Shown: positions 14,608 through 50,811 of the stretch, one piece after another | How positions within the stretch are numbered: position 1 is the stretch's first letter | How the letters are laid out: every line of letters starts with the position of its first letter | Assembly (NCBI RefSeq): GCF_947623445.1 | Contig: NC_135248.1 | Location: 1,488,001 to 1,552,000, forward strand | Source: Clavelina lepadiformis | Lineage: Eukaryota > Chordata > Ascidiacea > Aplousobranchia > Clavelinidae | Direction: 5' to 3' | Length of the DNA stretch: 64,000 nt | Made by a program: the position numbers and the translations under genes | Notes under the pieces: model-generated | Databases searched by the model: none | Told to the model about the DNA's origin: nothing | The model's input: only the letters and a program-made list of their open reading frames with translations

Positions 14608-15064
14608 TTCGTTACTTTACCAAGCTCCACTGGTATATTCCAGCTTTACAATCTTAATTTAAAACTCCTGAAAAACGAACTTGTAGTTTGTTGTAATCTT
14701 GACGTTTCTTCTAGTTTGTTTGTTAAAATTCTGGAAGGCAGTTTTACTCCAAGCATAATACTTTTAATGCCAAGTAAAATACTTTTAACACAAAGGTGGC
14801 ATAACTTTACTACACTGTAAAATCTCCCAAACTTAGCACACAAAGTCCTGGTCGCTAGAACCCTGAAAGCTTCAATCAAAAGATTTTTGTTTTAAAAATA
14901 TATGTAGAACTGCCAGCCTTGTTTGCAGTTAATTTCAAGGCAATTCTAAGGCTTTCAGCTTGACCTGGCAAACTCATCAGTCATCACCAACAACCGGTCA
15001 ACTACACCGAGGTGGTGAACTGAAACGCCAAATGCGAGGCATATGTTACTCGATGGAGAAGAGT

Positions 15065-15072: not shown

Positions 15073-18000
15073 CAGGACCGGATTAAGCTTTTTATGGGCC
15101 TGGGGCTCTATGATAGTCAGAGGCCTATTTTTTATTCTATTCGTTGTACTAAAAACTAACCACAATTGAAACGAAAAAAAAATATTAACACATAAACAAA
15201 GTATATATTTACTTTGTATGCACACATTCAAATGACGCATTTTCTGGATTTAGACAATGCAAAGCTCTTAATAATGTCATCGGTGTCTATTTTTTGCAAA
15301 ATGTCGTTTTCGATGCAGAGTATAGCTAAGGAATTCAACCTTTTCTGCCTCATAGACGAACGCAAATGATTTTTTACTCTTTTTAGTGCTGAAAATGAGC
15401 GCTCGCCAGAGCAATTAGAAATCATCAGACAAAGATAAAGCTTGAAAACAACCGATACATTAGGAAATGCATGCGCGAATTCATTTTCATTTATGAACTT
15501 AAACATCTGAATTTCTTTGCATTCACTGTTGAAATGGTGTTGTTTTATCAGTGTAGAAAAATGAATCATCTCCTCAGGCAATGACTCCTCCAGATCATCT
15601 GGATAATATTGAAGTAACGATTTCGCACTTGCTTCAATTTTGCAGTTAGACATGGTGTTCAATTCTATCAAAAACGAAAACTTTCTTTGGAGACCGTCGT
15701 AAGCTTCTAGTCGGGTTTTCATAGACGAAAGAATTTGGTCAATGATCGGCAGATATGAGTCTACTTTGAATCTGCTCAATGGATCAAGTGATGTGTCTTC
15801 AGATTCACCTTCGCTATCCAACCCTACTTTTCTTCTTTTCTTTCTTGAAATTTCTTCAGTGTAATGATGACAGCCACTTAATGCTTGACCTCTTCCTTTA
15901 AATGTTTGAAATTGGGGTCTGAGAAGTTGAATAAAGTTCTGTAGACCCTGAAGCAAATTTGTTGCCTTATTCAAAGTCATGTTGCTGTCCTGCAGAGCCT
16001 GACTCGTCTTATGGAACCGTTCCATTATGCACGACCATACCTCGACTAAAATACCAGTTTCAAGCTTTTTCATCGATGAAACAAAACCCCTGGCTGTTTC
16101 TTTAGTTTGATATGTTTCATCATTGTCATCAGATATTGCCGTCAAGACTTGAAGAACCGCTTGGTAACCTTTTCTTAGTGCATGTAGCGCATCATATCGC
16201 GCCTCCCAACGTGTATCAGACAAAGGCTTAATTGTTAGACATTTAAGTGGTTTCAGTGCATCAACAAGAAGATTCCACCTGTGTGTTGAAGCTGAAAAGA
16301 ATACATAGAGTCCTTGAACAAACATGAAAAAACGAACCGCGGATTGGCAACACTCAGCAGCACATTTTCCCACAAGATTCAAGGAATGTGCTACGCAAGG
16401 AATATATTCTGCTTGGTGGTTGCGTTCTTTTATTATAGCTTGCATACCTTTATATTTTCCGCTCATGTTAGCAGCGTTGTCATAAGATTGTCCTCGGAGA
16501 TCTTTCAAACTGATCCCATTGTATTCTATAAACTCCAAAAGTATATCAGCCAATTGGCGACCAGTGTGTCCACGGGTGGGCATAAATTTGACAAATCGTT
16601 CCACGGGACCATCAGGTAAAACATACCGAAAAATTATTGTTAACTGGTCAACATTTGCAATGTCAGGTGTTGAGTCCACGGACACTGAATAATACTTTGC
16701 TTGTTTTATTTCGGAAATAATAATATGTAATACTTTTGTTGCAATTGCGTCAATGAATTCCTCACATAGGCCTACAGTCGATGAGAAATACGAAACGTGT
16801 CCCTTGCCTTTGTTCACTCTCTTTTGAATATGCTCAGCAAGGAAAGTATCGTATTCTGCCAACAACTCCAAAATTCCAAGGAAGTTACCGTTTTGTGGAG
16901 AACCAACCCTCTCACTACTTCCGCGGAAGGCCAGCCCTCTGGATGATAGGAATTTTATCACGCTTAAAACTCGAGCTAATACTTTGCACCAATATTTTCT
17001 GTCAGATTCGTTTTGCTCTTCCAAATCTTTGCAAATGCTTCCTTTTTTTGCTCTTCGAAAGAAATATGTTGAAAGATAACTTAAGTGTTTGTTAGAAGAT
17101 TCGTGCCTGGCCAGGTCGCGTGGTGCATGTTTCCAGTCGCCATAACCAACTGATGCCAGCTGCAGCATGATTTTCTCAGAATCAGACGCAAAAAGTTTGC
17201 AAAAAAAGCAGTAAAGTTTCTTGGTTGAAGGCGAATAGCAAAACCATTCGCGTTTCACTATTTCGCCGTTTAATTGTTCTCGCCAAAATAGCGATTTAGA
17301 ACAACGCCGTTTAAATATATCGCCAGTAATACGTGTCTCTGAAGTTGAAAAATCTGCATCAAGATGTTGAAATTCTAAACTTCCTATTTGGCAGCAGTAA
17401 TCTCTCAGCTGGTCAGAAATTCCTCCCCAGCATCCAACATCCATGTCGTGTTGAATAGTTTCTTTTACCCCATGTGTTTCATCCTCAGCAACATTAGATG
17501 ACTTGGTTTTTAAATTTGGTTCCGATGAAACAATATTTATATGTGGCTCTGCAATACAGTCACTCGAAGTAGATGGTCGCAAAGCAGTTGCATTAGGCCT
17601 ACAGGACGTCGTTTCTGCAATGTTGCTTTTCGGTTCGCTTACAACATCAAAAAAATCAGTCACTTTTTTTGAACCTGCTACAACTTTTTTCAATTTAGCT
17701 TCTGCTTCTCTTCTAGATTTCTCCTTTTCCCAACCGCTTTTATACTTCTTCATTTTTATTTTTAAATTAATTTAGCCAAGCTAAAAACAAAACAACTAAA
17801 AACAATATGTTGCTATACTCTAGCCTAGACTATAGCAACAGCTACTCTAGCTACGCCTAGAGTCTCTAGGCGAGCTAGATTTAGATGACCCTATAGTGGT
17901 CTTTCGCTACTGCCTGCATGCGCAATATTGTTATGTGCGTTATTGCGAAATAAACTTGACTTGACTTGGCTACTAACAATCCTGCCTAACAGCCGAGAAA

Positions 18001-18200: not shown

Positions 18201-18208
18201 CATCTCGC
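18201..18208. repeat. Right target-site duplication of hAT element
   Basis: CATCTCGC, identical to 15065-15072. Unit sequence homologous to 40557 onward resumes immediately after. Confidence 0.9.
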
Positions 18209-20313
18209 GTCTGCAAGTTGAGTAATTTAAACGAAGAAAATTAAATTAGCACTCTGCTAGTTTTTTTGTGGGTGGCGCGAGTTAAATCTCTTTTGTCTTG
18301 CCGTCAGTGTTTTCGTATTGAGTATAACTTGTTTAGTCTAATTTAAAACCCTGTTGTAGGAGGTAACCTCCAAGATGTTAAGCCAACTTTTTATTGTTAC
18401 CTATTATCATGTGATACCACATGCGCGTCTGTAAGGTTTCGATTAGGTAGTGAATTAATATTTCAGAAATCAGAGAATTAATGAGGTTGTAGCCGAACTT
18501 GATCCAAGTCTAACATAGTCTCAATGCACATGTTGAATGCGTTGATAATGTAACGAAAAGTTTACGTTACTTGACGCAATTATCTTTCACCAGACTATAA
18601 TTACATTTAGAACCCCGCCGGGATTATATTCTACCATCAAAAGTACGTGGACAATATTTCTAAACGCACAAAAGTACCAGCTGTTAGAACACGAGGCATA
18701 TGTTGCCCATTAGAACGGTCAGTCACGCTGCACCGAGGTTGACCCTAATTAAACAAAGGGAATTCGAACAGCAGCCGGCGGCGTGTTTTTCAGTTCCTTC
18801 GACGAGCTGAAGTCAGTTCCAGTCTACCAGCCTTCTGATTCATTATTGCAGCACTGGGCAGATGTCACTTATTGGAACGGTCGATTGCCGACGCTGATTC
18901 TAGGTTAATCCTAATAACAGAGCTAGAACAGCAGTCAGCAACATGTGGTTTGCTTTTTCATGAAGTCTTTTCAAAGCCGGCAGATTATGGCACACCGCTC
19001 ACTGTGGTTGCTGAGACATGATGTCAGACTTTATCAGCTTCAGCTGCAGAATAAGTGTAAGGACGAATGACTTGTTTCATATACGCATGTAATAACGCTT
19101 GTACAGTTACTTTTAAGTCGCACTTTCAGACTGAAGCTGCAGGGTTTGTCAATTCGAAGGGATTATTTCACTGCATGTAGGTCACAAAGCATATCACCAA
19201 AGTTGATTTTAGGGTTTGATTGAAGTTAGATTTAGGTTACTACGTCATAACATTGGTTAACAAGGAACTGTTAAAAATAGTATCAAACGCACGCATTTTT
19301 GCCGGTAAAATAGTGGCAGCTTTGTCAATTTGGTTACTGCAACTGGTTATTTGCCGACAACCAGTTAAAATAGGTTACTGGTCTCAGACAGTGTTGCGGT
19401 CAGTTGTAATGTGTTATTTATTCTTCATCGTTGACTGTGAGAAGCCGAAAATATGATGCTACTTTTGTTATAGACTGGTCAAGTAAGAAATGTTTTAATA
19501 CCAATGGATTTTTGTATGAACGAAGTAATAGTATCATATATGTAAACCAAAAATTTCATTAATTTTCATTAAGTTTGAACAGTTATTGTGGAATGCAATA
19601 AAATCACGTACAAGATTAACAAGTATAGGCCCATGCTATTTTGTGGTTAATTATTATTTGCCGTTTATAAAGAAGTTTAGTAAATTAGAATATAGAAGTA
19701 AATTTTATAGTTACAACTTAATATTACATACATACATATACCGTTCAACGGGTGCCAGTCTATAGCCGCACACTGGTCTGTACCAGAACGGTGCTACTCT
19801 GTCAGAGAACGAGGAAAAAGCGCGGCGTCACGGTACTGCGCTGACCGTTATGGTTGTTATAGCGATGTCAAAGAAATATTTTAGTACCTGTGCGAGGCAA
19901 AAGCTGAAAAGTATGAAGATAAGCGCCTCAAAATTATTTGGTATTTGCGTCAGAATAAATGAGTGTTATTTCAAAAACGTAAATTTTGTTTTATGCTGTT
20001 ATTTTCAAAAAGAGATGATATATGCTGGTTTCAATGATTTTGTTGTGGTGTACTAAATCTATCCTGCACTTCGTACGATCTTAATCAACTATTAACAACA
20101 GAAGATTGAACCGACAGCATCGCGTCAAAGTCCGCGGCGCCGCGTTTTGTTCTCGATATATAACATGGCAGGACCAAACCAGTGTATGGCCAGGCTGGCA
20201 TCCCAACTGAACCAATTACAAATTGGTTTTGCAGAATCATTATTAAGTTAGCGAAGCTATTGTAAATACTGTACTAAGCTCGTATACCATTTACCCAAGG
20301 CAAAGAAAGAAGA
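18209..20313. other. Spacer between C1 and A1; conserved in unit 2
   Basis: No exon is supported. The whole stretch matches 40557-42666 closely. It contains an imperfect internal duplication: the block around 18690-18790 (GAACGGTC...GAACAGCAGCCGG) resembles 18865-18960 (GGAACGGTC...GAACAGCAGTCAG). A GC-rich patch lies at 19740-19900. The region before 20313 probably holds the A1 promoter. Confidence 0.5.
19738..19915. other. Conserved GC-rich block upstream of A1
   Basis: A ~175-bp GC-rich island in AT-rich DNA, matched at 42087-42262. A frame is open in the unit 2 copy but interrupted by TAG in unit 1 (TTTTAG for TTTCAG), which argues against coding. It could be a promoter element or an old repeat. 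No tRNA-type A/B boxes were recognised. Confidence 0.4.
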
Positions 20314-23203
20314 ATGCATTCCAATGAAAAAATATTCATGTTCAAAGTGTCTGCTGTGGTTGTCATGACTCTCGCTATGTCAATCAATTTCGGTCTTATG
20401 TCGATGTCGGGTAAGTGTTTGTTTTAATACCTGGGATTTTTCATCATTAAATGGGTGTTTATGTCCAAAACATTTGCAATCTCGTTATAATATTGTCCAT
20501 AATTGCACTGTCGAAGTTTTATACAAAACTTGGAAGACATGCAAAGGCGTCATGTCAGACTTTATCAAGCTGGCTAAAGGTTTTTGTCCAGTTCTTAAAA
20601 CAAAAATTTTCTTTAAATACACTTTACTGTAAACTATTTTTGTAGTTGATGTTGGGGTTTGATATCATGTGCTTGGATTACAATGCTAGGAATGCATCTG
20701 CTGCTTTAAGGCTCTAATTCTTTTGTTTTACAGCCCAGATTGTTCCAAAGATCTTTGGGGAAACCCCCATGACATGTGACCTGGACTTGACCAAAGCAAG
20801 CATTAACGATACCAGGTCAACAAACGTCACGTTGGGGTTGGAAACAGCAAATGTGTCATCTGCACAGCAAGTTGTCAGGCCACGAAGTTTAAAGAAAGAT
20901 GAAAAAGATTTTCCTTTCTTTGAAAACTTCAACAAAACCGCCATTTATACCGCTAAATCAATATTTCAAGCTTTTTCCAGTGTTGTCATAGGTCCAATCA
21001 TCGATAGATTCGGGCACAAGGTTGCAATGTATACAGGAACATTATATCTCTTCATAACTGCAATAGGTCGGTTACTTTTACCATTCTGCAGTAATCTATA
21101 TTTTTACATGTATGAAGTTCATTTACTCAGATCAACTCAACACTTTTTAACTCATTTCTTGCTTTTGCTTATCTCAGACAAATCTATAACAATGCTTTTG
21201 TTCAATTGGGGGGAAATTTTAATTTTGTTGGGTTAAGGGTAATATTAGTTATAGTGTTATTAGAACGAGTTAGTAACTCGTTCTTCAAAGTATAAGCTTT
21301 GGTACAACATTCTCTGAAGTCTAATCCACTTATCACTGTTTGATTTGTCTTATTATAACATCGGTTCCTTTCATGTGGATTCACTTGTACTCGTCTGCAT
21401 TGGCGACGTTTTTATGAAGAAGCGTCACCAAAACCATTTAATATTGTATCAGTTGAACTAAAACTGTTCATTTTAGGATTTGGCCTGAGCCAGAGTTACC
21501 CTGTTCTTCTTTTATCGGCCACTATACATGGCATTGGGTCTTCGTGTGTTACGGTAGGCGGGATGACTATGCTGGCGAAGACCTTCAACAGCAAAAAAGA
21601 ACGACGAAAAATATTTGGGCTGACCCTGGCATCAATAGCAGCTTCCATATCAGGTGGATACTGTGTTCAAGGGGTGTTTGTTAAACATGACAGCATTACA
21701 ATTTTATGCCTATTAATAGTTTGTTTGGTTAACACGGTTCAGACAACATCAACTTAGTAGAGTGTATTACATTACGTTGTTGCAAACTTGCAATGAAGGT
21801 GGGCTGGCAGTCTGGAGCGTACTGGAACCTGTTATCGCTACTACAAATGCAGCCACGTTGTTCGTCATTGCCGTGACGATGACTTCGCTCGGACTCTGTC
21901 AGCTTTTCCAAACTTATTTCGACACCAAAAAAGTTAAAAAGGTTACTACATTGATTGATATTTTGACTATATTAGGCATGCTTGTCTCTGTGAGATCGTT
22001 AGAGAATAAATTATAATCGTTGTAATAGGATAAGAAACCAAACGTATGGAAATTCCCGACACGCTTCCCCTTGCTAATGCTGGAAGCCCTTCTGTTACTT
22101 GGATTGGTGGTAGGAGTATTGTTCGGCGGATTTTCAAGCTGGTTAACTTGTCGTTTTATGTCATTTCCCGAATTAATTTCAGGTAAAACTAACAATATTA
22201 GCCTCTGCATTTTCATGCTTTAAATTCTCAGCTGTCTATGGTGTCTACATTACAGTCATTTGTTTGTAAAAAAAAAACTTGATAAGAAATTGTAGAGGTC
22301 AATTTCCGATTAGCCAAGGATTTTGCTACGAGAACTTTGGTTTAAAACGAGTTTAGGTTCTGATCAGTTATTTATTTACCAATTACTAGATTGCATTAAA
22401 GCTATAGTTTCAATTCCAAGCTTTAGAGACAAAATATCAAGTAGCTAAAACTCTAAGCAAAAGTTTCTCACACAAGTAATTTTATTTTTACAATGAATTG
22501 TTTCCAGGTACCGGTAAGGTTATTGTTTTTCTTCCTGCGTTTTTTGGGTTCCAGCTGACAGCAAGTTTGGTCCCTTATTCACCCCTTTCCAGTCACTATC
22601 TTTACCCGTTGACGATTGCGGCGCTGGGAATGGCCATCACTTGTTTGGGATTATTGGCAATAATACTTTCATCAAGGTTTAAATGTATTTTGATACAAAA
22701 AGGTTTAAAGATTGAAAAGTTGTCTACAAATTAAGAGTTTCTGAACGTTTTTATCACAATGAACTTGCTAGAGAGGCAAAGACATCAGTTCAAACGTACC
22801 GAGATATTGCTTCTTGTTCAGCCCATTCCACATCATTATCTGTTTGCTTGCTGTTGGCTGTGGATGTGGGTTGGTTGCCAGTTTTATTTATCCAATTTTG
22901 GCCTGGCTGGTAACAGTTAGTGGAATGTCAAACTACGGAACCGTATACGGATTGGCGGATGCTATCATCTGTGTTGGTTTTACTGCAGGTCACTGTCCGT
23001 AGCTATGACATAATGTGACTACTACTTACGCAGTAATGAGTAACTGTTGTTTGTTTGCAGGTATTTATGCCGCCGGTGCAGTCGTGCAGGCTTCGACCTA
23101 CGTCATATTGATATTGCTGTCTGCTTGTTTTTGCTTGTTGTACGCCACATTTATAGTGGTCGTGATCTTGTCGGTGGAACGAAAAGTTGATAAACAAATG
23201 TGA
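20314..23203 (+). CDS. SLC18-like transporter A1 (vesicular amine transporter family), 460 aa
   Basis: Proton-coupled MFS antiporter of the VMAT/VAChT type by similarity; the substrate is unknown. Eight exons: 20314-20410, 20734-21066, 21477-21653, 21799-21941, 22029-22182, 22508-22676, 22822-22988, 23061-23203; phases 1,1,1,0,1,2,1. Exon 1 encodes TM1. Exon 2 holds an N-glycosylation-rich luminal loop (several N-x-S/T), then TM2 with MFS motif A, GPIIDRFGHKVAMYTG (VMAT GPLTNRIGYHIPMFAG). Exon 3 has HGIGSSCVTVGGMTMLA, matching VMAT GIGSSFSSVAGLGMLA. Exon 7 has NYGTVYGLADAI, keeping the TM11 Asp that is essential in VMATs. The TM1 Asp of VMATs is Asn here (SINFGLM). The exon 2 donor (GTCGGT) is weak. 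Tail exons at about 23429-23468 and 23761-23852 may extend or replace the C-terminus after KQM. Confidence 0.85.
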
Positions 23204-23428
23204 GAAAAAATTTTGATGTAGTTTGGTAAAGTTTGACGTCAAACATTTTTTGTTACTAATGTCTCACTAGCTCTTAGTATGACATGTGCTATCGTAGGCT
23301 ACGGTCAAAAACGACAAAAGCCAAATGATGGTGGTAAATTGTCAGTAACAACTAGCAAAGCCACTAAAACTATAAAACAAGAAATAGGAATAAATTTATA
23401 GTTGCATTTAGAACCTCGTTGTTTGAAC

Positions 23429-23852
23429 ATGAGCAAAGAAACAGGAAACGATCCAAGGCTGAAACCGGGTAAGTGGCGGCCATAGCTCATTATAATAACG
23501 TTGACCACCCATTGGCACTTTTATCTTTATGAGATATGAATCACAACATAACAACAATCACGTAATATCATGACATATCATTTCATGATAATCACTTGGA
23601 AATTTTGCACAAAACTGAAATACTTCCCGAAACATAGCAAAAAAGTTGTAGTCTTTACAGTTTAAGCTGTATTTTTATTGTCAAGTTTATGGCGAATAAC
23701 AAACTTAATGCTTATAGTATGCTGGCTGCAAACAATCTAATATTAATCGCTATCTTTCAGCGTCAACTCAAAAGTCACGACAAGGGTCGTCAGCAACGTT
23801 TAAAAACTTGAGTGAGTTTTATTCAAGAAGCAACGAAAAGCTGAAGACATAA
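23429..23852 (+). CDS. Possible alternative C-terminal tail exons of A1
   Basis: After the A1 stop there are two exon-like segments: up to 23468 with a strong donor (GG|GTAAGTGG), and 23761-23852 after a strong acceptor (CTATCTTTCAG) ending in TAA. Read from ATG 23429 they give a 43-residue polar tail (MSKETGNDPRLKP then ASTQKSRQGSS...). Both splice sites and the frame are conserved in A2, where a 3-bp deletion keeps the frame. Phase 1 with a G|CG junction also fits tail exons at 51112-51146 and 58968-59074. I could not find an exon 8 donor in the right phase; a GTGAGA donor inside the exon 8 stop region would read the same exons in another frame, ending VSNV. A polyadenylation signal AATAAA is at 23953. 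Confidence 0.45.
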
Positions 23853-25087: not shown

Positions 25088-26699
25088 ATGGTTATCGTGT
25101 ATCTGCTGATGATGATCGACTACGGTCTTTTATCGATGACATGTAGGTGCCGACTTTCAAACCTAATGTTTTAATTCCTAAAGTTCTTTGCCCTTTTTCT
25201 AAAAAGTCAAAAGCATTTTTGAAACCTGTCCATCTCGACACAGTATTACTAAATGCGGTTGCAATTTTTACCTTAATAATCTATTAATTCTTTAGTTTGC
25301 AATTTTGGTTCGCTGTTTTACAGTTTAGGTTTTTCAAGCCGACTTCAGCAATACTCACTTCATCTCGAATATAGACCCACGCAACGACATTAGTTTGTCG
25401 GCAAACGCTACGTCAGACACGACAGTTACAAACCTGACAGCTACAATGCAAGGCGTTACGCCACAAAATTTAAGAGATGACGAACATGCTATTCTAGCAA
25501 CACAGAATGTCCACCCTGCTGCAATTCTCGCTGTTAAACCATCAATTCAGTCAGTGGTTAACCTATTATCTGGTTCATTGATGGACAGGTCCGGATACGG
25601 TGTTCCTATGTTTGTAGGAACTTTGGCCCTTCTTTTAACTGCAATAGGTCTGTTGTGCTTCTTTGTTGTACAATTATCTGCTCATTCTCTTAGAATTATA
25701 TTAACAGCTGCATTTTGAAACACAATGTCTGTCTTTTCTTATTTTTTGTCGATTTGTACTCACTATTGTCCACTCTGCTGTTTGAACTCATGTGTGTGAT
25801 GGAAAGTTTGTTGTCAATGACTGAAAAGTTAAAATAATCTTTTAGAAGGTGTTGATAATTATTATTTTTTCATAGCTTAAGCTTAGATAAAACAACATTT
25901 TGAAAACCTAACGACTTAACATTATTTTGGTATTATAACCTACCTTTTTGTCATACTTAGTCACTCTTGTTGGGTCGCAACGAGAAAGACATCATAAGCC
26001 ATAAGGACAAGCTACAGATGCAACTTTACCTTGTTTCGATTAATCTATGAAAATGTTCATTTTCAGGTTATGGATTCGGCCAGTCGTACACTGTTCTACT
26101 CGTATCGGCCGCTCTACATGGCATAGGATCTTCATTTGTTACGGTGGGCGGGATGACCATGATGGCCAGGATCTTTAATGACAAGGAGGAAAGAGCAAAG
26201 AAGTTCAGGACGGCTTTGTCATCGGTGGCAATAGACATGACAGGTAGATGTTGTTGAATGGATATCTTCTCTATGTAACGTTATCTTTCAATGGAAAATG
26301 CAAACAAGTTGTGGAGTATACGAGGATAAGGACATTACAATTTTACATATCAATTTGTAAACTGCATAAGCATATCGACTCTCACAATGTAAATGTCATG
26401 TCTATTTCTTTTGAAGCTGGACCGGTATTCGCGAAAGGGGTGGACAGTTTTCAAGATAAAATGATACCGTTTTTTGTATTTGCCGTTTTGATAACTTTGT
26501 TCGGGTTCTGTCAAATTTTCTGCATCGGTCTAAAGATTGAAAGAGTGAGTAGGATTTTCATTGCTGATAATTTTCTGCGTTTTTTCAAGTATGTTGATTT
26601 TGTAATATTGGTACAAAAACTGGTCATCTGCATTAGAACAAGAAGCCAATGACCCTTTCGAAGTTACCCAATGTCAGCTGCATTCTGCTCGCTGTACAA
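25088..26699 (+). pseudogene. SLC18-like gene B1, pseudogene lacking its 3' half
   Basis: Exons 1-4 are recognisable: 25088-25142, 25324-25647, 26067-26243, 26417-26544, with the beginning of exon 5 from 26637. They align to B2 exon by exon with equal lengths. Two lesions are visible. At the start of exon 2 the second codon is TAG (25326-25328) where B2 has CAG. After about 26699 the rest of exon 5 and exons 6-8 are deleted (about 1.6 kb relative to 49544-51170). Exon 2 still encodes a glycosylated luminal loop and LLSGSLMDRSGYGVPMFVG (MFS motif A) and exon 3 HGIGSSFVTVGGMTMMA. An alternative acceptor TTTAG at 25328 would bypass the stop but puts exon 2 out of frame. Confidence 0.88.
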
Positions 26700-27423
26700 G
26701 AAAGCCGAAATTATGACATTTCAAACAATGATTCCTTACTTCGGTGATGTGCTTAACAGTGTCCTTGTGCAATTGCATGCTTTATTTACGAACCTCCCTT
26801 GTACATGATATTGAACTGTTTGTAAAGTTAAGCAAAAGATTAAAGTTTAATCGACAATATTCAAACTTTGCAAATGACTTTCGTGCAAGGGTTCCCTTGA
26901 ATTTCCTGTGTCATTGGCTTCATCTTACTCTGATTAATGCAAGGCTAGAAAGCAACACGCACGTCAGACAGCCTCGATATGAGTTTGCCCGGTTCCGAAT
27001 AGTAGGCCTAGACTTGTGACACACGTGGTGAGGGGCCATCGCTTCGGTAGGCCCACGTGCAATCGTAAACACATCGCTTAGTAATAGATAATTGGCTGTT
27101 GTCAAAATATTAAGCAAAATATTTTAAATGCTTGGGTCTACTTTTGAAATGGTTTGCTTGTCGATAAAATGTTTTCAACTATAGCTGTTGTCAATGTTTC
27201 ACAAACACTTGGAAACCATGCAAAGTGCATCTTAGTCCTGTCAAAAGCATTGAACCAAATAATTTTATGGTAGTTTTCGAAACGGTTCTTCAAATCAAAG
27301 GCTGCCATCGGTATATTTAGAAGGTGCAAATATTGTAAAGTTCTGTTTATTTTTGTTGTTGTCTGTGGAGGAAAGTAACATAAAATGCCATTCCAATGAT
27401 TGCGTGATAAAAGTTAAAACAGC
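26700..27423. other. B1-D1 spacer, near-identical to unit 2
   Basis: Matches 51171-51888 with only a handful of differences. It contains a GC-rich hairpin-like stretch at 27020-27060 (CACGTGGTGAGGGGCC...GGCCCACGTG). The frames here are open in both units merely because the copies are nearly identical. Confidence 0.5.
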
Positions 27424-27432
27424 AACTCCAAC
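27424..27432. repeat. Left target-site duplication of MULE
   Basis: AACTCCAAC, repeated exactly at 30197-30205. Nine bases is typical of Mutator-like elements. Confidence 0.9.
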
Positions 27433-28055
27433 GGTACTACGACACCTTATCGAAAGACACTTTATCGAAAGACACTTTATCGAACGACACCTGATCGAAA
27501 CGACAGCTGATCGAAAGACACTTTATCGAACGACAGTTAATCGAGCCGACAGTTGATCGAACGACACTTTATCGAAACGACAGCTGATCGAACGACACTT
27601 TATCGAACCGACAGTTAATCAAAACGACAGTTGATCGAACGACACTTTATCGAACCGACAGTTCAAGCAAGATTTTTGCGTGTTTCTCAAACATTGAAAC
27701 AATGAGCCATTGTGAATTGTGATGTGCGGTCTTTGTAATCGTGTGCATTAATGAATTGTGATGTATATATCATAAAGTTGACGATTTATATTTTATATCT
27801 ATATTTTATATTTGTATCATAAAGTGTTCGATTTCGCATGGCGGCCGGCCCGCCCACATATTAATAAGATATCACAAGAATACGCACGAGAATTACTAAG
27901 TACGAGATTGTCTGTACAGTAGACTAGACTAGTCATTATAGATACAAAGAGTAAGGAATTGAAGGCAAAATTTTATAGCAAGGGGCATGTCGCTGCCTGA
28001 CTTTTACACAAAGTAGCTTCTTGAAAGTAGTCTCTTGACCGACAGCGCAAAATAA

Positions 28056-28184
28056 ATGGCTTCGATGCTTGGTAGCACGTACACATGTGAACAAATATTT
28101 TCAACAATGAAATTCACGAAAAGCAAGCTAAGATCACGCATTTCCGACGCCTATTTAGAAAATGTTCTGGTTCTTGCTTCATGA
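28056..28184 (+). pseudogene. Captured hAT transposase C-terminal fragment inside MULE
   Basis: Forty-two codons (ATG 28056 to TGA 28184) read YTCEQIFSTMKFTKSKLRS... then a hydrophobic end VLVLAS. This is the C-terminal dimerisation segment of GTF2IRD2/EPM2AIP1-like hAT proteins (pattern CEQ-x-FS-x-MK). It is a different hAT group from the element at 15073-18200. The fragment fuses directly with the MULE transposase region in another frame, so it was picked up by the MULE or a hAT copy landed there and was then truncated. Confidence 0.75.
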
Positions 28185-29492: not shown

Positions 29493-29935
29493 TTAACCCT
29501 ATCCTAACCAGGCTCGCGAGTTTACTAAAAAAACTAGGTGTGGCCAACCCCGCACACACATTTGCAATCGTTAATTACTAGAAACCTATGCGTCGTAGAC
29601 TGATGAGATTATTACAGGTTAGTAGAAACATCATCTGGCTTCCTGTATACATCATAATTGTAAAACTAAAGAAAGTGAATTTATTGTAAATTAGGTATTT
29701 CTAAAAGTGACACATTTCTATAAATTCTTCTTGTTACGCCGCGCCCCCGCTGTGAAAAGAGAACGAAAAAGAATAGTTAGTCAAGTTATTGGTGCGTAAA
29801 TGAGTAATACGCTTCAATGCGGAGAGAGAGCAAAATTATATAAATATCACAATATCTCAAAAATTACAAAATCCAATTTTATCAAACAAACATGGACAGA
29901 TAACTGAACATCACAATGACCCATTGTTTCAATGT
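29493..29935 (-). mobile_element. TTAA-type non-autonomous element fragment nested in MULE
   Basis: Begins TTAACCCTATCC at 29493. Its reverse complement matches about 61770-62237, with shared blocks including TCCATGTTTGTTT, TTTTTGAGATATTGT, CTCCGCATTGAAGCG, TCATTTACGCACCA and GGCCACACCTAGT. Only one terminus is clear here. Confidence 0.65.
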
Positions 29936-37267: not shown

Positions 37268-40169
37268 TCAGCCATATATAAACTTGACGTACAAAAGATA
37301 GGCGCAAGGCATGATTAACATCAGTACTGGGTAAATGCAAGTAACTGGTAAAATTCCGCTGGTAACCAACACACCTAAGAAATGCATTTTTTAAAAGTTT
37401 TGATAAGCAAATGGTGTAACTTCACGAAACACTTACGCAACGTTACCTGTAATAACACCGAAATTGAGTATAGGGTCCGCCAACGCGTAGACGGCAGCAT
37501 AGTTCGAGTCCTGATTTTTTTCAGCGAGTGACGTCAAGTTTGGATAAATGTTAGTGGCAACCGAGACAAACCCGATCATAAGTGTAATGGTCGACGAGTT
37601 TATGGAAAATAACCTGAATAACATAAGTGTCTCAGTATATAATCTGTGCTTAGCATGCATTACCTGAAAACAGGAAAGAACTTATTGGTATGCAAAACGT
37701 TCTTTACAACACATTGAGTTGTGAAAAAACACTGAATCTTTATTCCTAAACAAACCTCAACGAAAGTGGGAACGAAGTTAATCCGACGGTAGCTGTGAAC
37801 AAGCCCAATATTGTTCCCATCCAACGTCTGAGTGGAAACCTCGGACGACTGCTCATAATTGACAATCTAATTGCCAAGGCAATGCCACAAGAAAAGATAG
37901 CCAAAACTGGAACAAAAATACATTATAAAGCGGGGATGTATTCCTAAGAGTATCAAGTGAAAAAAGCTGCATGAATGTAGTCATACCTGTTTGCCACTGT
38001 AAGTCTACGCCAGATATTGACCATACTGAACATGACTCAGTTAGCGTTCCCAGCACTAAGCCTATTACAACCAGAATTACCCCAGCTCTTGAAAAGTCGT
38101 TGTCATTGAGCAAAGGCAATAAGGCCACAGGCTGCTTTGCCTAAAGCAGAAAAGTTAAGGAACAAAAGTCAAAGTGTTCAAACCACGAACGTTATAAATC
38201 ATGACAACAGACTAACTTTTTCATTCCTTTCAATCTTCGGAATATTAAAAAGCAGCAGGAATAAACCATGTAAAGCAATCAAGGCAGTAACAATGCAAAG
38301 TTTTACAATTTTATCTTGAAAAGTTCCCACAATATCCTCACTCCATGGTACGACTTTTAATCAAAATAGGGTATTGTTACATAATAGCTACAGCCTATAA
38401 TACAAAGCAACTGTTATTATTGAAGCAATGTAAAAAGCGATGGTAAACTGCAATGTCATAATTGTCGTATACGTATACTTGATAATTGATTTGATTTCCT
38501 TCAAGTAACAAAATTGAATTCAACGTCAATGCTTTTTCGCAATTCTGAACCTACTTGCCACTCGAAGTAATATTGATGACAAAGACAATCTAATCACGTG
38601 TCTTCTTTGATTCTTGTCGGTGACAGTACTGACCAGCATGGTCATCCCGCCCACCACGTTACATGAAGCACCGATGCCTTGAATGGCGACCGATACAAAT
38701 AGGGCAGGGTACGACTTGGCCAGTGCAAAACCTGAAATGTAAACAAGTTTAAATTTTTTGTAAATGTAATAAAACGTTTCTATGACGTTCATGAGTATCC
38801 TGGTTGGCAACATAATTTCAATCAAATAGGTCTAAACGTATTAGTCACAAATTACGAAAGAAGGTGACCAAAACTAACATAATTTAGCTTTGAATTCACC
38901 AGACTGAACGTGGTTGTTATAAAAATGAAAACTTCTTCATATGACCTCAGATACTTGTACAATATAAACAGTAGTAGAGCAAAACCTACCTATGGCAGAT
39001 AACGACATAACAACGGTCCCAGCAAACATGGGAACCTTGTATCCGATCCTGTGAATCAATGGACCAACAAACATATCAGTAACGACTTGGACGGCCATTT
39101 TGCAGATAAAAATGGAGGAAATTTTCACACCCTGCGTAGCGATGAACGCTTTCCTCGCGTCTTCCATGCTTTGTAACATATCACCTTCGATCGTTGCAAT
39201 ACCGTTATTGCTTGCATTGTATAAATATGGATTTGACTCCAAATGACTTTTCCACAGGACAGACGGAATTATTGAAACTGAAGACAAAATGTAATCAATA
39301 AAAAATCAATAAAATCGACAACTTAAAGTAATCGAACAGACGAATGTGGGTGGTGAACTTATAATTGGGTTCATATATGATTGTAGTATGAAATAGATTT
39401 AATAGAGTTTCGGAAATTGAAACCAATTAGTTTCCAGTATGTTGTTTGGAGTTTAAAAGGGTTTATGGAATGAAGCAAAATGGAATGTAAAGATTCAAAC
39501 TAAACCAAAAGAAATCCTTTTTAGTTAACTTGCGTTTGATCCGGATTAATTAACTGTGGTAGTATTACATGATTTTATTATTAAAATCCGAAACAACAAG
39601 ATTTCGCGGCAGACATTGTTGGAAATATGAATTGGGCGACAACCATCTACAATTCTACATCTTGCCTCATGACAATGGTTATGCGCTGCCTGATCAATTG
39701 AAAAATAGGCGGTAATGGCAAATATTAGCATCGCAAAGGGGGTGCTGAATGTACAAAGCTCAGGGCGCACTGATGTGCTATGCAGATTACGTCATAGGAC
39801 AATAACACTAGGCTAACCCCACAATTCAATTGATTCTTAGAATTGTCGGGATACCGCAGCGTCACGAGATTTGTTTCACGAACCTTTCAGTGACTGCTCA
39901 AAACCTTTTTGTATGGCACCGACGCACTTTGCATATTTTCAATTGTTTGCGAAGAATTTGCAAAACAATAATTGTTTACTAATTATTAGTAGCATTGGGT
40001 CGAGAATAAAACTGTTTCTGATAAAGCTTTGAAAATAATAACTAATTCTAAGGATTAAAAGACTCAGGATAAGGATAGTTTTGCACTTACTTGTTGTTAT
40101 TGAAAGATTGTAAGTGAGAGACAAAACGCAGAGCAAGATAACCACACCTAGTGTGTTGCTAGATTGCAT
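37268..40169 (-). CDS. SLC18-like transporter C2, 419 aa
   Basis: Eight exons on the minus strand: 40169-40091, 39277-38990, 38731-38555, 38353-38217, 38140-37987, 37906-37756, 37613-37447, 37374-37268; phases 1,1,1,0,1,2,1 as in A and B. Key motifs are VGPLIHRIGYKVPMFAG (VMAT GPLTNRIGYHIPMFAG), QGIGASCNVVGGMTMLV (TM4) and NYAAVYALADPI (TM11, Asp kept). The luminal loop has YNAS. The first ATG in frame is MQSSN. Exon 4 uses a donor 12 bases beyond that of B because the old GTGAGT site has changed; the new one is GTTAGT and the frame holds. The last exon ends at TGA 37268 where C1 reads on for about 45 residues, so the cytosolic tail is shortened. It could be functional or newly decaying. Confidence 0.8.
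38818..38989. other. Intron 2 of C2
   Basis: Intron between exons 2 and 3 (38732-38989), canonical GTAGGT donor and TTTCAG acceptor on the minus strand. Nothing else seen. Confidence 0.5.
39278..40090. other. Long intron 1 of C2
   Basis: At about 810 bp it is the longest C2 intron. The part near 39925-40090 is also present next to C1 exon 1; the remainder is lost from unit 1 by the deletion. No gene is recognised inside. Confidence 0.5.
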
Positions 40170-42666: not shown

Positions 42667-45548
42667 ATGCATTCCAATCAAAAACTATTCATGTTCAAAG
42701 TGGTTGCTGTGGTTATCGTCACTCTCACTATGGCAACCAATTTCGGGCTTCTATCGATGACGTGTAAGTGTTTGTTTTAATACCTGGGATTTTTCAGCAT
42801 TTAATGAGTGTTTATGTCCAAAACGTTTGTAATCTCGGTACATTGTCAGTAATTGCACTGTTTTTTTTATAAACAACTTGGAAGACATGCAAAGGCGTCA
42901 TGTCAAACTTTATCAAGCTAGCTAAAAGTTTTTGGGAAGTTCTTAAAACAAAAAATGTCTTTAAATACGCTTCACTGTAAACCATTTTTGTAGTTGATGT
43001 TTGGGTTTCATATCATGTGCTTGAATTACAATGCTGGGAATGCTTTAAAGCTTCAAGTTTTTTGTTTTACAGCCCTGGTCGTTCCAAAGAGCCTTGGGAA
43101 ATCCTCCATGATATGTGAATCAGACTTGACGGAAACAAGCATTAACGGTACCAGGACAACAAACGCCACGTTTGGGTTGGCAACTGTAAATGTGTCGTCT
43201 GCACAGCAAGTTGTCACGCCACGAAGTTTAAAGGAAGCTGAAAAAGATTTTCCTTTATTTGAAAACCTCAACAAAGCCACCATTTATGCTACTAGATCGA
43301 TATTTCAAGCTTATTCCAGCGTTGCCATAGGTCCAATCATCGACAGATTCGGGCACAAGGTTGCCATGTATGCTGGAACCGGATTTCTCTTCATAACTGC
43401 AATAGGTCGGTTACTTTTACCATTCTGCAGTAGTCTATATTTTTACATATATGAAGTTCAATCACTCAGATCAACTCAACACTTTTTCAAACTCATTTTT
43501 TACTTTTGCATAACTCAGACAAATCTACAACAACGCTTTTGTTTAATTGGGGGCAAAATTTAATTTGTTCGGTTCAGGGTAAAGATTAGTTTAGTCATAT
43601 TAGAATGAGTCAGTGACTCGTTCTTCAAAGTATAAGCTTTGGTACAACATTCTCTGACGTCTAATCCAGTTAACACTGTTAGATTTGTCTTGGTCTAACA
43701 TCGGTTCTTTTCATGTGGATTCATTTGTACTGGTCTGCATTGGCGACGTTTTTATGAAGAAGCAGAAGAAAAAAATCATTTAATATTGTTTCAATTGAAC
43801 TAAAAACGTTCATTTTAGGATTTGGCCTGGGCCAGAGTTACCCTGCTCTTCTTGTATCGGCCACTATACATGGCATTGGGTCTTCATGTGTTACGGTAGG
43901 CGGGATGACTATGCTGGCGAAGACCTTCAACAACAATGAAGAACGAGGAAAAATATTTGGGCTGACTATCGGGCATATCGACTATCTGACTATTTGGGCA
44001 TCGGTAGCAGCTTCCATATCAGGTGGATACTGTTCAAGGGGTGTTTGTTAAACATGACAGCATTACAATTATGTGCCTATTACTAGTTTGTTTGGTTAAC
44101 ACCGTTCAGACAACATCAACTTAGTAGAGTGTATTACATTGTTTTGAAGGCGTGCTGGCAGTCTGGAGCGTACTGGACCCTGGTAACTCTACTACAAATG
44201 CAGCCACGTTTTTCGTCATTACCGTGGCTATAACTTTGCTCGGACTCTGTCAGCTTTTCCACAATTATTTGGACACCAAAAAAGTTAAAAAGGTTAATGC
44301 ATTGATTGATATTTTGACTGTATTAGGCATGCTTGTCTCTGTGAGATCGTTAGAGAATAAATTATAATCTGTATTAGGATAAGAAACCAATCGTCGTGTG
44401 GAAATTCCCGAAACACTTCTACATGCTAGTGCTGGAAGCCCTTCTGATACTTGGATTGGTGGTAGGAGTATTGTTCGGCGGATTTTCAAGCTGGTTAACT
44501 TGTCGTTTCATGTCATTTCCCGAATTAATTTCAGGTAAAACTGCCATTATTAGCCTATATGCATTTTCATGTATAAAAAATCTCAGCTGTCTATGTTGTC
44601 TACATTACAATCGTTTTTTGTAAATAAACTTGATAAGAAATTGTGGAGGCCAATTTCCGATTAGCCAAGGATTTTGCTCCGAAAACTTTGGTTTAAAATG
44701 AGTTTAGGTTCTGATCAGTTATTTAGTTACCAATTACTAAATTGCATTAAAGCTATAGTTTCAATTACAAGCTTTAGAGACAAAATATCAAGTAGCTAAA
44801 ATTCTAAGCCAAAGTTTTTCACACAAGTGATTTTATTTTTACAATGAACTGTTTCTAGGTACCAGTAAGGTTTTTGTTTTTCTTCCTGCGTTTTTTGGGT
44901 TCCAGCTGGCAGCAAGTTTGGTCCCTTCTTCGCCCCTCTCCTGCCACTTTCTTTTCCCGTTGATGATTGCGGGAATGGCCATCATTTCTTTGGGACTGTT
45001 GGCAGTAACACTTTCATCAAGGTTTAAATGTATTTTCATTCAAAAAGGTTTAAAGATTGAAATTTTGTCTACAAATTGATAGTTTCTGAACATTTTTATC
45101 ACAAGGAACTTGCCAGAAAGGCAAAGATATCAGTTCAGACGTACCGAGATATTTTTTCTTGTTCAGCCTATTCCACATCATGATCTTTTTGTTTGCTGTT
45201 GGCTGTGGTTGTGGGTTGGTTGCCAGTTGTGTTTATCCACGCTTGGCCAGGCTGGTAGCAGTTAGTGGAATGTCAAACTACGGCACCGTATACGGATCGG
45301 CGGATGCTATCATCTGTGTTGGTTTTACTGCAGGTCACGAGCCGTAGTTATGACATAATGTGACTACTATTTACGCAGTAATGAGTAACTGTTGTTTGGT
45401 TGCAGGTATTTATGCCGCCGGTGCAGTCGTGCAGGCTTCGAGCTACGTCATATTGATGTTGCTGTCTGCTTGTGTTTGCTTGTTGTACGCCACATTTATA
45501 GTGGTCGTGATCTTCAAGGTGGAACGAATAGTTGATAAACAAATGTGA
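42667..45548 (+). CDS. SLC18-like transporter A2, 468 aa
   Basis: Eight exons: 42667-42763, 43073-43405, 43819-44022, 44150-44292, 44378-44534, 44859-45021, 45167-45333, 45406-45548. All junctions keep frame. Exon 2 has an N-glycan-rich luminal loop and GPIIDRFGHKVAMYAG; exon 3 HGIGSSCVTVGGMTMLA; exon 7 NYGTVYGSADAI. Compared with A1, exon 3 has a 27-bp in-frame insertion (GLTIGHIDYLTIWAS for GLTLAS), exon 5 one extra codon and exon 6 two fewer. The TM1 acidic residue of VMATs is Asn here too (ATNFGLL). Possible tail exons lie at 45773-45812 and 46159-46247. It lies head-to-head with C2. It looks intact. Confidence 0.85.
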
Positions 45549-47956: not shown

Positions 47957-49936
47957 ATGTTTATCGTGTATCTGCTGATGATAATCGACTACGGTCTTTT
48001 ATCGATGACATGTAGGTGCCGATTTTCAAACCTAATATTTTAATTCCTAAAGTTCTTTGTCTTCTTTCTAAAAAGTTGAAAGCATTTCTGAAACCTTTCT
48101 ATCTGGACACAGTTTTACTAAATGCAGTTGCAATTTTTACCTTAATGAACTATTAATTCTTTGATTCCTAATTTTCATTTCCTGTTTTACAGTTCAGTTT
48201 TTTCAAGCCGACTTCAGCAATACTCACTTCATCTCGAATACAGACCAACGCAACGACATTAGTTTGTCGGCAAACGCTACGTCAGAGACGACAGCTACAA
48301 ACCTGACAGCACCAATACAAGGCGTTACGCCACAAAATTTCAGAGATGATGAACATGCTATTCTAGCAACACAGAATGTCCACCCTGCTGCAATTTTCGC
48401 TGTTAAACCAGCGGTTCAGTCGGTGGTTAACCTATTATCTGGTTCATTGATTGACAGCTTCGGATACGGTGTTCCTATGTTTGTAGGAACTTTGGCCCTT
48501 CTTTTAACTGCAATAGGTTGGTTGTACTTCTTTGTTGTACAATTATCTGCTCATTCTCTTAGATTAACAGCTGTATTTTGAAACACAATGTCTGTCTTTT
48601 CTTATTTTTTGTCGATTTGTACAAACTATTGTCCACTCTGCTGTTTGAACTCATCTGTGTGATGGAAAGTTTGTTATTGACGGCTGGAAAGTTAAATTAA
48701 TCTTTTAGAAGGTGTTGATATTTCTAAGGTATTTCGTCATAACTTAAGTTTAGATAAAACAGCGTTTTGAAAACCTAACGGCTTCACATTATTTTGATAT
48801 TATAACCTACCTCTATTTTATTGGTTCGCAACGAGAAAGACATCATAAGGACAAGCTACAGAAGCAACTTTACCTTGTTTCGATTAAACTATGAAAATGT
48901 TCATTTTCAGGTTATGGATTCGGCCAGTCTTATTTTTTTCTACTTGTATCGGCCGCTCTACATGGCCTAGGATCTTCATTTGTTACGGTGGGCGGGATGA
49001 CCATGATGGCCAGGATCTTTAATGACAAGGAGGAAAGAGCAAAAACGTTCAGAACGGCTTTGTCATCCATGGCAATAGGCATGACAGGTAGATGTTGTTG
49101 AATGGATATCTTCTCTGTGTAACGTTATCTTTCAATGGAAAATGCAAACAAGTTGTGGAGTATACGAGGATAAGGTCGTTACAATTTTACATATCAATTT
49201 GTAAACTGCATAAGCATATCGACTGTCACAATGTAAATGTCATGTCTATTTCTCTTGAAGCTGGACCGGTATTCGCGAAAGGGGTGGACAGCTTTCAAGA
49301 TAAAATGATACCGTTTTTTGTATTTGCCGTTTTGATAACTGTGATCGGGTTCTGTCAAATTTTCTGCATCGGTCTAAAGATTGAAAGAGTGAGTAGGATT
49401 TTCATTGCTGATAGTTTTCTGCGTTTTTTCAAGTATGTTGATTTTCTAAGATTGGTACAAAAACTGGTCATCTGCATTAGAACAAGAAGCCAATGACCCT
49501 TTCGAAGTTACCCAATGTCAGCTGCATTCTGCTCGCTGTACAAAGTTTGATGATAACTGGATTCGTGTTAGGTGTGTTAATTGGCGGATTTCCAGACTTG
49601 TTGATGCGTCGTTTAAAACCCTCCAAATGGGAACTGGGTATGTAGTCTTAAAAGCATATTTATGCTTAAACTTTTCAGCAGTTTATTACAGTTACTCGCA
49701 TGTTTTGTGTAAATATTAAATCTATTTTCTAGTAGCTAGCAAACTTTTGCATTTAGTCAATTCTGCTACGCTTAAGATGGTGAGCTCCTTTTGTTAATAT
49801 GGGACTCGACATGTATAAAATTTGAATGATTACGTAATATGTTCTAAACTACAGTTAAGTGAACTTTAGGTTTGTTGTTAATCAAAGCAAAATAGGTACA
49901 ATAATCCTCTACCAAATGAAATGGTAATACTTACTG

Positions 49937-49979
<43 letters not shown>

Positions 49980-50811
49980 CGTGTGCTTATATACTTATAA
50001 CAGGTTTGCTGCGATTAACTAAGTAGCTTAGCAAGACACTTTATCATAAACTTAGCGTTCAAACTGGAGCACCTAAATGCCAAGCTAATGAGAGATCCAA
50101 TTTAAATCTGGTAAATAATTAATCAGCGTATTTTTATATGTAACTGTACGTAGGTGATGTTTTTTTATACGGGATTGTTGGATTCGAGTTGTCAGCCATT
50201 CTGATCCGCAAACTTCCTTTCAATAACTGGCCTTGGATAGATACAGTGATGGGAATGGTGATTCTCTTTATCGGATTAATTATGTTGACACTTTCGCCAA
50301 GGTTCAAAGTTTTTATTGAGATAAAATTGTTTGAAAAAATTACAGATTTTGTCTAGAAACTTTTGAATATTTTTTGTCGTCAGTAATTTACACGAAACAA
50401 CAAATAATTAATCAATTCCAACTTATTTCCTTTTGTCAGCTTTTTGTTCATAACTGTCCCCACAATTGGTTATGGGATTAACTTTATTACCGGTAGTATT
50501 TATCCCGACTTGCCTTCGTTGCTTGAAGCTAATCATAAATCCCATTACGGGACCGTCTTTGCACTTGCGGATTGTGGCTTCAGCATTAGTTTCGCTGCAG
50601 GTAATATTTAGTAAATGTGACGTTAAGCTATACGATTGGCTAGGCATCAATTTAAAAGTTATGTTTATTTTAAGGTCTCTTGTGTTATTGCGCAATCCTG
50701 ACCACTTCAAACTTCCACTATGTCATGTGGATGATGGGGTTTATGTGCATGGTGCACGCCACGTGTAACCTTGTGTTCTGGAATTTGAGGAAACCGCAAT
50801 CGGCAGTATAA
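47957..50811 (+). CDS. SLC18-like transporter B2, 428 aa
   Basis: Intact counterpart of B1. Exons: 47957-48011, 48193-48516, 48911-49087, 49261-49388, 49481-49637, 50154-50301, 50440-50600, 50675-50811 (TAA); phases 1,1,1,0,1,2,1. TM1 is short and keeps an acidic residue (LLMIIDYGLLSM), at the place of the TM1 Asp that binds amine in VMATs. Exon 2 has a Thr/Asn-rich luminal loop and LLSGSLIDSFGYGVPMFVG; exon 3 HGLGSSFVTVGGMTMMA. Exon 5 ends KWELG (VMAT KWQLG), and exon 7 has HYGTVFALADCG with the TM11 Asp. Of the three genes it keeps most of the VMAT charge pattern, so an organic-cation or amine substrate is a reasonable inference. A further tail exon is possible at 51112-51146. Confidence 0.87.
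49938..49985. repeat. (TA)n(TG)n microsatellite in B2 intron 5
   Basis: A run of TA dinucleotides changes to TG/CG dinucleotides. Unit 1 has lost this region. Confidence 0.9.

What the first reader, a model, noticed from the sequence alone, without database searches (positions are those of the whole stretch)
22822..23203. A1 versus A2: nearly all coding differences change amino acids
Comparing exons 7 and 8 of A1 (22822-22988, 23061-23203) with A2 (45167-45333, 45406-45548) by eye, I count about 16 amino-acid replacements and only about 2 silent changes. Exon 2, with the luminal loop, is likewise replacement-rich (roughly a third of residues differ), while the shared upstream non-coding DNA appears less diverged than exon 2. 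The splice sites and the reading frame are nevertheless kept. This pattern suggests diversifying selection on substrate specificity or luminal loops; pseudogene drift would also add silent and frame-breaking changes.
Basis: partly seen in the sequence, partly recalled or inferred. Interest (0 to 1): 0.8.

Follow-up and report, generated by a model that had tools for sequence, protein, structure and literature searches.

The report
Fast-changing duplicated vesicular-transporter-like genes

Summary
The counts are right: exons 7-8 of A1 and A2 differ in 18 codons, 16 replacing and 2 silent, with splice sites and frames intact. The excess is weak: P=0.10. Whole-gene dN/dS is 1.16 by counting (95% 0.79-1.85) and 1.49 by likelihood (P=0.06). 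Coding DNA (10.1%) and introns (9.7%) diverged equally.

I added six further A copies from the same genome. Codon site models first gave strong "positive selection" (P 5e-4 to 5e-6), but introns share the same rate variation. Allowing for it leaves P=0.04 and 0.026 and 0.009; a neutral simulation gives 0.07.

Plain drift is rejected: over eight copies 1 stop against 16.8 expected; charged residues in helices 9 against 19.6 (P=0.006).

These are SLC18 (VMAT)-like genes in a recombining birth-and-death cluster. Sites matching the VMAT2 pocket are conserved (3 of 20 vary), so substrate diversification is not supported. Luminal loops have the highest ratios, untested. Modest positive selection remains possible.

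The parts
20314..20410 (+). A1 exon 1 (start ATG, first membrane helix)
   Evidence: open frame, donor GT; omega 1.95 by counting, 3.24 by likelihood, P=.19
20734..21066 (+). A1 exon 2 (luminal loop 1 and next helix)
   Evidence: 70% protein identity to A2; dS .184 dN .148
21477..21653 (+). A1 exon 3
   Evidence: A2 has a 27-nt in-frame insertion here
21799..21941 (+). A1 exon 4
   Evidence: Nd 13, Sd 1, ML P=.059 uncorrected
22029..22182 (+). A1 exon 5
22508..22676 (+). A1 exon 6
22822..22988 (+).
   Evidence: 10 replacing and 2 silent codons against A2
23061..23203 (+).
   Evidence: 6 replacing and 0 silent codons against A2
42667..45548 (+). A2 gene, eight exons 42667-42763, 43073-43405, 43819-44022, 44150-44292, 44378-44534, 44859-45021, 45167-45333, 45406-45548; 468 aa
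43819..44022 (+). A2 exon 3 with a 9-residue insertion (next to A1 residue 194, aligned to VMAT2 225) found in 1 of 8 copies
18206..23553 (+). Copy 1 of the duplicated block holding A1; pairs with 40556-45897
   Evidence: 88.8% identity over 5416 columns
25088..26699 (+). B1, broken neighbour gene: stop in exon 2; the match to B2 ends inside exon 5 (26699 = 49543) and resumes beyond B2 exon 7 (26698 = 51169)
47957..50600 (+). B2, seven open exons; no exon 8 recognised in 50601-51300
37268..40169 (-). C, intact SLC18-like gene, eight exons, 419 aa
   Evidence: two further open copies

Best explanation
A1 and A2 are two intact members of a recently expanded, recombining tandem cluster of SLC18 (VMAT-like) membrane transporter genes. 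Selection keeps the open frame and the hydrophobic helices, and probably the sites matching the VMAT2 pocket (shown statistically, the pocket weakly). At most other positions amino acids change at about the neutral rate, with at most a modest excess. Ectopic recombination or gene conversion and birth-and-death turnover mix, break and replace copies (shown from mosaic and broken copies). The replacement-rich look of exons 7-8 is what near-neutral missense change gives, since about three quarters of random coding changes are replacing, in a small sample from the pair with the highest ratio of 28. That the proteins still transport something, and what, is inferred and unknown.
For: dN .112, dS .097 and introns about .10 agree; N against introns Fisher P=.59, S against introns P=.76. 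Among five intact copies variable sites are 20.7% (codon positions 1+2), 19.6% (position 3) and 19.7% (introns), with the same gamma shape in all coding sites and introns.50 and .51. With gamma, omega=1 is not rejected (2dlnL 2.5 five copies, 0.7 eight) and fits as well as M2a without gamma (-3576.29 against -3576.13). Frame constraint: stops expected 16.8 on the eight-copy tree, observed 1; 14.8 on the tree of the five copies picked for being open, observed 0 (600 simulations); frameshift-size gaps expected 7-9 in A1/A2 coding, observed 0. Missense filter: 9 charge-changing helix columns against 19.6 expected, P=.006; pocket 3 of 20 variable against 166 of 434, P=.035. Mosaic: A6 is 1-3% from A2 in the 5' part, then 1-4% from A1 and A4 over exons 3-8. 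Broken relatives: A4, A6, B1, B3, B5.
Against: If missense is filtered in helices and pocket yet the total is at or above neutral, something must add replacements elsewhere. An a-priori partition gives omega 1.47 at non-conserved sites (P=.009); M2a+gamma against M1a+gamma gives P=.04 and .026; replacing changes exceed non-coding expectation 1.21-fold with flanks included (P=.028; 1.10-fold and P=.18 with introns alone) and 1.49-fold in exons 1-2 (P=.004); variable sites cluster somewhat more in coding than in introns (dispersion 1.58 against 1.36 in 21-base windows). The pocket contrast is not significant within helices alone (3 of 17 against 88 of 250, P=.19). No expression or population data.
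Confidence: 0.56

Rival explanations
1. Real diversifying (positive) selection acts on a fraction of A-gene sites outside the substrate pocket, for example loops, helix ends and the C-terminal tail, and offsets purifying selection so that the mean ratio is about 1.1-1.5.
For: M1a against M2a P=5.5e-6 (8 copies), 1e-5 (5 intact copies), 5e-4 (A1, A2, A7, A8 only); still significant after masking multi-nucleotide codons and gap neighbours (P 6e-4 to 4e-5) and with equal codon frequencies (P 2e-4); M7-M8 P=1e-7 and M8a-M8 P=2e-6; the largest statistic in 75 recombining M1a null simulations was 8.3 against 23.1 observed; with gamma still P .04 and .026; a-priori partition omega 1.47, P .009; neutral-spectrum simulation ratio 1.27 at non-conserved sites, P .07; frame kept and helix charges depleted.
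Against: Rate variation of the same size is present in introns; omega=1+gamma is not rejected by one ratio; pairwise tests are not significant; overall neutral-spectrum ratio 1.13, P=.14; the C-terminal tail, richest in changes, has pS as high as pN (.29 each).
Confidence: 0.35
2. Diversifying selection specifically on substrate specificity or on the luminal loops.
For: Luminal loop 1 has 50% variable sites and pooled pN/pS 1.12; the small luminal loops 1.30, against .82 in helices; replacing changes in exons 1-2 exceed the intron expectation, P=.004; A1 residues 41 and 42 are high-posterior sites.
Against: Sites aligned to the VMAT2 pocket are conserved (3 of 20 variable, pooled ratio .45); exon 2 silent divergence is also high (dS .184); small luminal loops have only 31% variable sites and a low pS (.071); 16 of 18 high-posterior sites are outside loop 1. 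The class ratios were not tested for significance.
Confidence: 0.13
3. Unconstrained pseudogene drift of both copies.
For: Overall omega and rates equal introns; sister copies A4 and A6 are broken, as are B1, B3, B5.
Against: 0 stops and 0 frameshifts in A1/A2 against about 5 and 7-9 expected; 1 stop against 16.8 in eight copies; helix charges depleted.
Confidence: 0.03
4. A1 and A2 are divergent haplotypes or an assembly duplicate rather than paralogues.
For: Colinear blocks with divergence from 1.4% to about 13% could mix alleles and copies; no read data.
Against: Eight copies at distinct places, seven along about 170 kb of one 15.7 Mb contig and one on another contig, some with unrelated 5' flanks (A5, and A3 further upstream).
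Confidence: 0.04

Closest known systems
SLC18 family: VMAT2/VMAT1 and VAChT (MFS, proton-coupled vesicular amine transporters)
   Same: All 16 solved-structure hits for A1 are VMAT2, VMAT1 or VAChT (best E 2.8e-31); MFS_1 domain; long loop after helix 1 with N-x-S/T sites (sequence); D426, W318 and Q142 kept in five intact copies and K138 in four
   Different: Residues aligned to VMAT2 D399, E312, R189, N305, Y341 and Y433 are A, F, A, G, F and F in all five intact copies. D399A made VMAT2 inactive and E312D abolished transport in PMC11405867 (passages read)
Rapidly evolving tandem gene families (for example rodent Mup/Esp, PMC3477143; only the listing and start of abstract seen)
   Same: Tandem copies with fast protein change (here)
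   Different: Here a transporter-like membrane protein with clear exchange between copies; the seen abstract start says gene conversion played little part in its families. Positive selection is not established here

Membership tests
SLC18 / VMAT-like MFS transporter | Sequence homology across most of the fold to VMAT/VAChT | tested here: met
   A1 81-444 to VMAT2 113-466, E 2.8e-31; four-sequence profile E 3.4e-57
SLC18 / VMAT-like MFS transporter | MFS domain | tested here: met
   PF07690 E 3.3e-17 (A1) and 1.4e-16 (A2), above cut-off
Functional monoamine/proton antiporter (VMAT) | Acidic and polar pocket residues E312, D399, N305, Y341 (roles read in passages of PMC10770148 and PMC11405867) | tested here: not met
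   F, A, G, F in all five intact copies
Functional monoamine/proton antiporter (VMAT) | D426 | tested here: met
   D404 in all five
Functional monoamine/proton antiporter (VMAT) | TM1 Asp33 (recalled) | tested here: inconclusive
   HMMER alignments do not reach TM1; A has N, B2 has D, C has T in the likely column
Gene under positive selection | omega above 1 significantly, gene-wide | tested here: not met
   P=.06; five copies omega 1.22, P=.13 and 1.24 with gamma, 2dlnL 2.5
Gene under positive selection | Site class with omega above 1 after control for rate variation | tested here: inconclusive
   P .04.026.009.07
Pseudogene | Stops or frameshifts at the neutral rate | tested here: not met
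Any of the above | Transport activity, expression | not testable with these tools
   none

The most novel reading that the evidence does not exclude
An animal lineage has expanded a VMAT-like transporter that has lost the amine-handling residues, and positive selection, helped by gene conversion between copies, is diversifying its loops, helix ends and tail, while frame, helix hydrophobicity and the sites matching the VMAT2 pocket are held fixed. This would suggest selection on partners, regulation or escape rather than on substrate.
Probability: 0.3. Interest if true: 0.5.

Novelty: new member of a known kind. Interest (0 to 1): 0.35.

Why it matters
It shows a transporter-like family in which truncation and helix-charging changes are removed while other amino-acid changes pass at about the intron rate, and it says where to look next (non-pocket sites, luminal loops). 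It is also a caution: ordinary codon site models gave P~1e-5 here, mostly because they ignore rate variation that the introns share.

Tried and rejected
Pairwise dN/dS per exon: exon 8 P=.033 and exon 4 P=.059, uncorrected over eight exons, not accepted.

M1a/M2a and M7/M8 without rate variation: very significant, rejected as decisive because gamma alone fits as well and introns show the same heterogeneity. The 75 M1a null simulations contained recombination blocks but no rate variation, so they do not answer that point.

Conserved-site class defined by B2=C only: no significant difference (23 of 120 against 57 of 234 variable, P=.29); with VMAT2 added as a third vote it is significant (61 of 198 against 108 of 256, P=.014). 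Both are reported.

Polarising A1/A2 replacements with B2/C: 27 A1-derived, 17 A2-derived, 5 both, 52 unresolved; no asymmetry claimed.

B copies as a control: omega of the 15 pairs is .51-1.37; for the three pairs of open copies .82 (B2-B4).60 (B2-B6).53 (B4-B6). dN lies below intron divergence in two (.039 against .084.037 against .085) and equals it in the third (.008), but dS in the first two is also below introns (.047.062), so the contrast with A is weak. C copies differ by only 1-2% (omega .78-.94, dN .012-.019 above introns .004-.013).

Limits of my own tests. The five intact copies were picked for being open, so their zero stops are partly by choice; the eight-copy figure (1 against 16.8) is the fair one, though it counts A4 exon 6 and A5 exon 1 as present and does not count stops downstream of the A4 deletion. 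In the multiple alignment 3 of 9 coding gap intervals of the five copies are not multiples of 3 (1, 5 and 11 columns; introns 31 of 38), although every exon length stays in frame. Pocket positions come from passages of PMC10770148 and PMC11405867 except K138 and Q142, which are recalled; without these two, 2 of 18 vary. Helix borders are recalled VMAT2 boundaries. High-posterior sites come from the model without gamma. Rows set aside: A5 exon 1, A4 exon 6, A4-A6 from intact-copy tests, codons split by introns (from then on), gapped codons.

Literature: searches found 0 papers; none of the 9 titles or the 12 listed (of 339) is on this family. Three papers were opened for passages only: PMC11405867, PMC10770148, PMC10959523 (no match for the terms).

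Loci L054-L058 were fetched and not analysed; loci L001-L028 and L035-L053 came with searches and were not read. Script failures: division by zero, partial output; only 4 simulations finished, not used; environment error, no result.

Full report
What was checked. I rebuilt both models from the window: eight exons each, GT/AG at every junction, 460 and 468 residues, no internal stop. Exons 7-8 differ in 18 codons, 16 replacing and 2 silent, so the eye count is exact. The whole coding sequence differs at 101 of 458 aligned residues, with Nd 109 and Sd 30.

Is it more than chance? About 76% of coding sites are nonsynonymous, so mostly replacing changes are expected without constraint. Using substitution rates from introns and flanks of the same pair, 21 changes in exons 7-8 should give 4.8 silent and 14 replacing codons; two or fewer silent codons occur in 10% of runs. 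Against intron rates these exons carry 18 replacing changes where 22 are expected and 3 silent where 8.5 are expected. Whole-gene omega is 1.16 (bootstrap 0.79-1.85) by counting, reached by 7% of neutral runs, and 1.49 by a GY94 fit, P=0.06 against 1. Intron divergence is 9.7% and coding 10.1%. In exon 8 coding divergence (4.9%) is below intron 7 (8.3%). On the other side, replacing changes over the whole gene are 1.10 times the intron expectation (P=.18) and 1.21 times when flanks are included (P=.028), and in exons 1-2 they are 1.49 times the intron expectation (P=.004) with silent changes 1.29 times.

What the genes are. All 16 solved-structure matches of A1 are SLC18 transporters, led by VMAT2 at 2.8e-31, and both proteins carry the MFS domain. 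Positions aligned with VMAT2 D399, E312, R189, N305, Y341 and Y433 hold A, F, A, G, F and F in all five intact copies; D426 is kept. In passages of PMC10770148 and PMC11405867, D399 and E312 are described as central to amine binding or proton coupling, and D399A or E312D lose transport. So these are SLC18-like proteins that very likely do not work as monoamine transporters (inference). Their substrate is unknown.

The surroundings. The window is C9:1488001-1552000 of an unnamed 209 Mb genome. Exon 2 of A1 finds eight full-length A copies: seven on C9 between 1.509 and 1.680 Mb and one on C3, plus 28 short relics, many 2.0-2.2 kb apart. I fetched the six copies outside the window. Five of eight are open (A1, A2, A3, A7, A8); A4 lacks most of exon 6, A6 has a stop at codon 111, and A5 has lost the common exon 1 and 5' flank. 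A6 is a mosaic: 1-3% from A2 over the 5' part, then 2-4% from A1 and 1-3% from A4 over exons 3-8. Three C copies are open. Of six B copies, B1, B3 and B5 are broken and B2, B4 and B6 are open over the seven exons compared. This is birth-and-death with recombination between copies.

Family-level selection tests. Omega over the 28 pairs of A copies runs from 0.59 to 1.19, and A1-A2 is the highest. My own codon site models (GY94, F3x4, own tree for exons 1-2 and for exons 3-8) gave M1a against M2a P=5.5e-6 for all eight copies, P=1e-5 for the five intact copies, similar with four blocks, and P=5e-4 for A1, A2, A7 and A8 alone. The result survived masking of codons with multiple changes and of gap neighbours and equal codon frequencies. 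Among 75 null data sets with recombination the largest statistic was 8.3, against 23.1 observed.

Why I do not accept that as proof. These models assume one underlying rate along the gene. Adding gamma rate variation lets omega=1 fit as well as M2a did (lnL -3576.29 against -3576.13), and M2a then beats M1a only at P=0.04 (five copies) and 0.026 (eight). Introns of the same five copies show the same heterogeneity (shape 0.51 against 0.50 for coding) and the same share of variable sites (19.7% against 20.3%), though variable sites cluster slightly more in coding. So most of the apparent signal is rate variation shared with non-coding DNA, as mosaic ancestry would produce.

What remains. Sites were split in advance by agreement of at least two of B2, C and VMAT2, without looking at A. 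With gamma, omega is 0.96 at conserved and 1.47 at other sites, and the latter exceeds 1 at P=0.009. An earlier split on B2=C alone showed no significant difference (P=.29). A simulation with the empirical mutation spectrum and rate variation gives 1.27 times the neutral ratio at the other sites (P=0.07) and 1.13 times overall (P=0.14). This is suggestive, not conclusive.

Constraint is nevertheless real. Neutral evolution makes 16.8 stops on average along the eight-copy tree, and one is seen; no run of 600 gave one or fewer. For the five copies picked as open, 14.8 are expected and none is seen. Charge-changing columns in helices are 9 against 19.6 expected (P=0.006), while outside helices they are as expected (26 against 22.5). 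Pocket-aligned sites vary in 3 of 20 cases against 166 of 434 elsewhere (P=0.035); within helices alone this contrast is not significant (3 of 17 against 88 of 250, P=0.19).

Where the changes are. The 18 sites with posterior above 0.8 (from the model without gamma, so a ranking only) are A1 residues 41, 42, 146, 148, 187, 255, 262, 264, 307, 331, 379, 383, 389, 451, 453, 455, 456 and 458. Two lie in luminal loop 1 and five in the C-terminal tail. Pooled pN/pS by class is .82 in helices, 1.01 in cytosolic loops, 1.12 in luminal loop 1, 1.30 in the small luminal loops.99 in the tail and .45 in the pocket; the neutral simulation mean is about .83. So luminal loops rank highest, without a test of significance, and the substrate pocket lowest.

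Control families. Of ten pairs of intact A copies, nine have dN within 20% of intron divergence; A2-A3 is lower (.045 against .076). Open B pairs have lower omega (.53-.82), but dS is low too in the two more diverged pairs and changes are few, so the contrast is weak. C copies differ by 1-2%, too little to judge.

Verdict. The count is right and the anti-pseudogene argument is right. Diversifying selection is possible (I give about one in three) but not shown by this pair, and substrate diversification is disfavoured.

Noticed in passing
window 32437-32590, 34708-34861, 54626-54782, 56845-56998 (minus strand) and 24 further places on C9 1.55-1.67 Mb: 28 short relics of A exon 2 (75-78% identity), many spaced 2.0-2.3 kb: a macrosatellite-like array carrying a dead transporter fragment; four copies in this window.
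   Followed up: partly
L032 (C9:1658200-1664200): A6 is a recombinant gene: A2-like upstream and through exons 1-2, A1/A4-like from about intron 2/exon 3 onward, and carries a stop at codon 111.
   Followed up: yes
L031 (C9:1614400-1620400): A5 keeps exons 2-8 open, but its promoter side and exon 1 are unrelated to the other copies (about 50% mismatch), as if a breakpoint fell just before exon 2.
   Followed up: partly
window 26698-27432 and 51169-51903: 735 bp at 98.6% identity next to blocks at 87-92%: recent conversion or a younger duplication at the B gene 3' end; copy 1 lacks the 1.6 kb that holds most of B exons 5-7 in copy 2.
   Followed up: partly
window 27439-27715 and 29911-30189: Inverted arrays of short repeats flank a 399-aa open frame (28159-29358) that looks like a transposase (recalled resemblance, not searched): probably a mobile element inserted between the copies.
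   Followed up: no
window 15228-17771 minus strand: An 847-aa open frame that looks like a hAT-type transposase (recalled resemblance, not searched).
   Followed up: no
window 13700-14700 minus strand: D, a relic resembling gene C: an exon-1-like stretch followed by parts like exons 6, 7 and 8, with nothing like exons 2-5 seen between (read by eye; matches).
   Followed up: partly
G000 C9:1.37 and 1.70-1.74 Mb, C7:1.12-1.13 Mb, C6:15.28 Mb, C9:13.73 Mb: More SLC18-like exons at 27-55% identity to A1, so the family is larger than this cluster.
   Followed up: no
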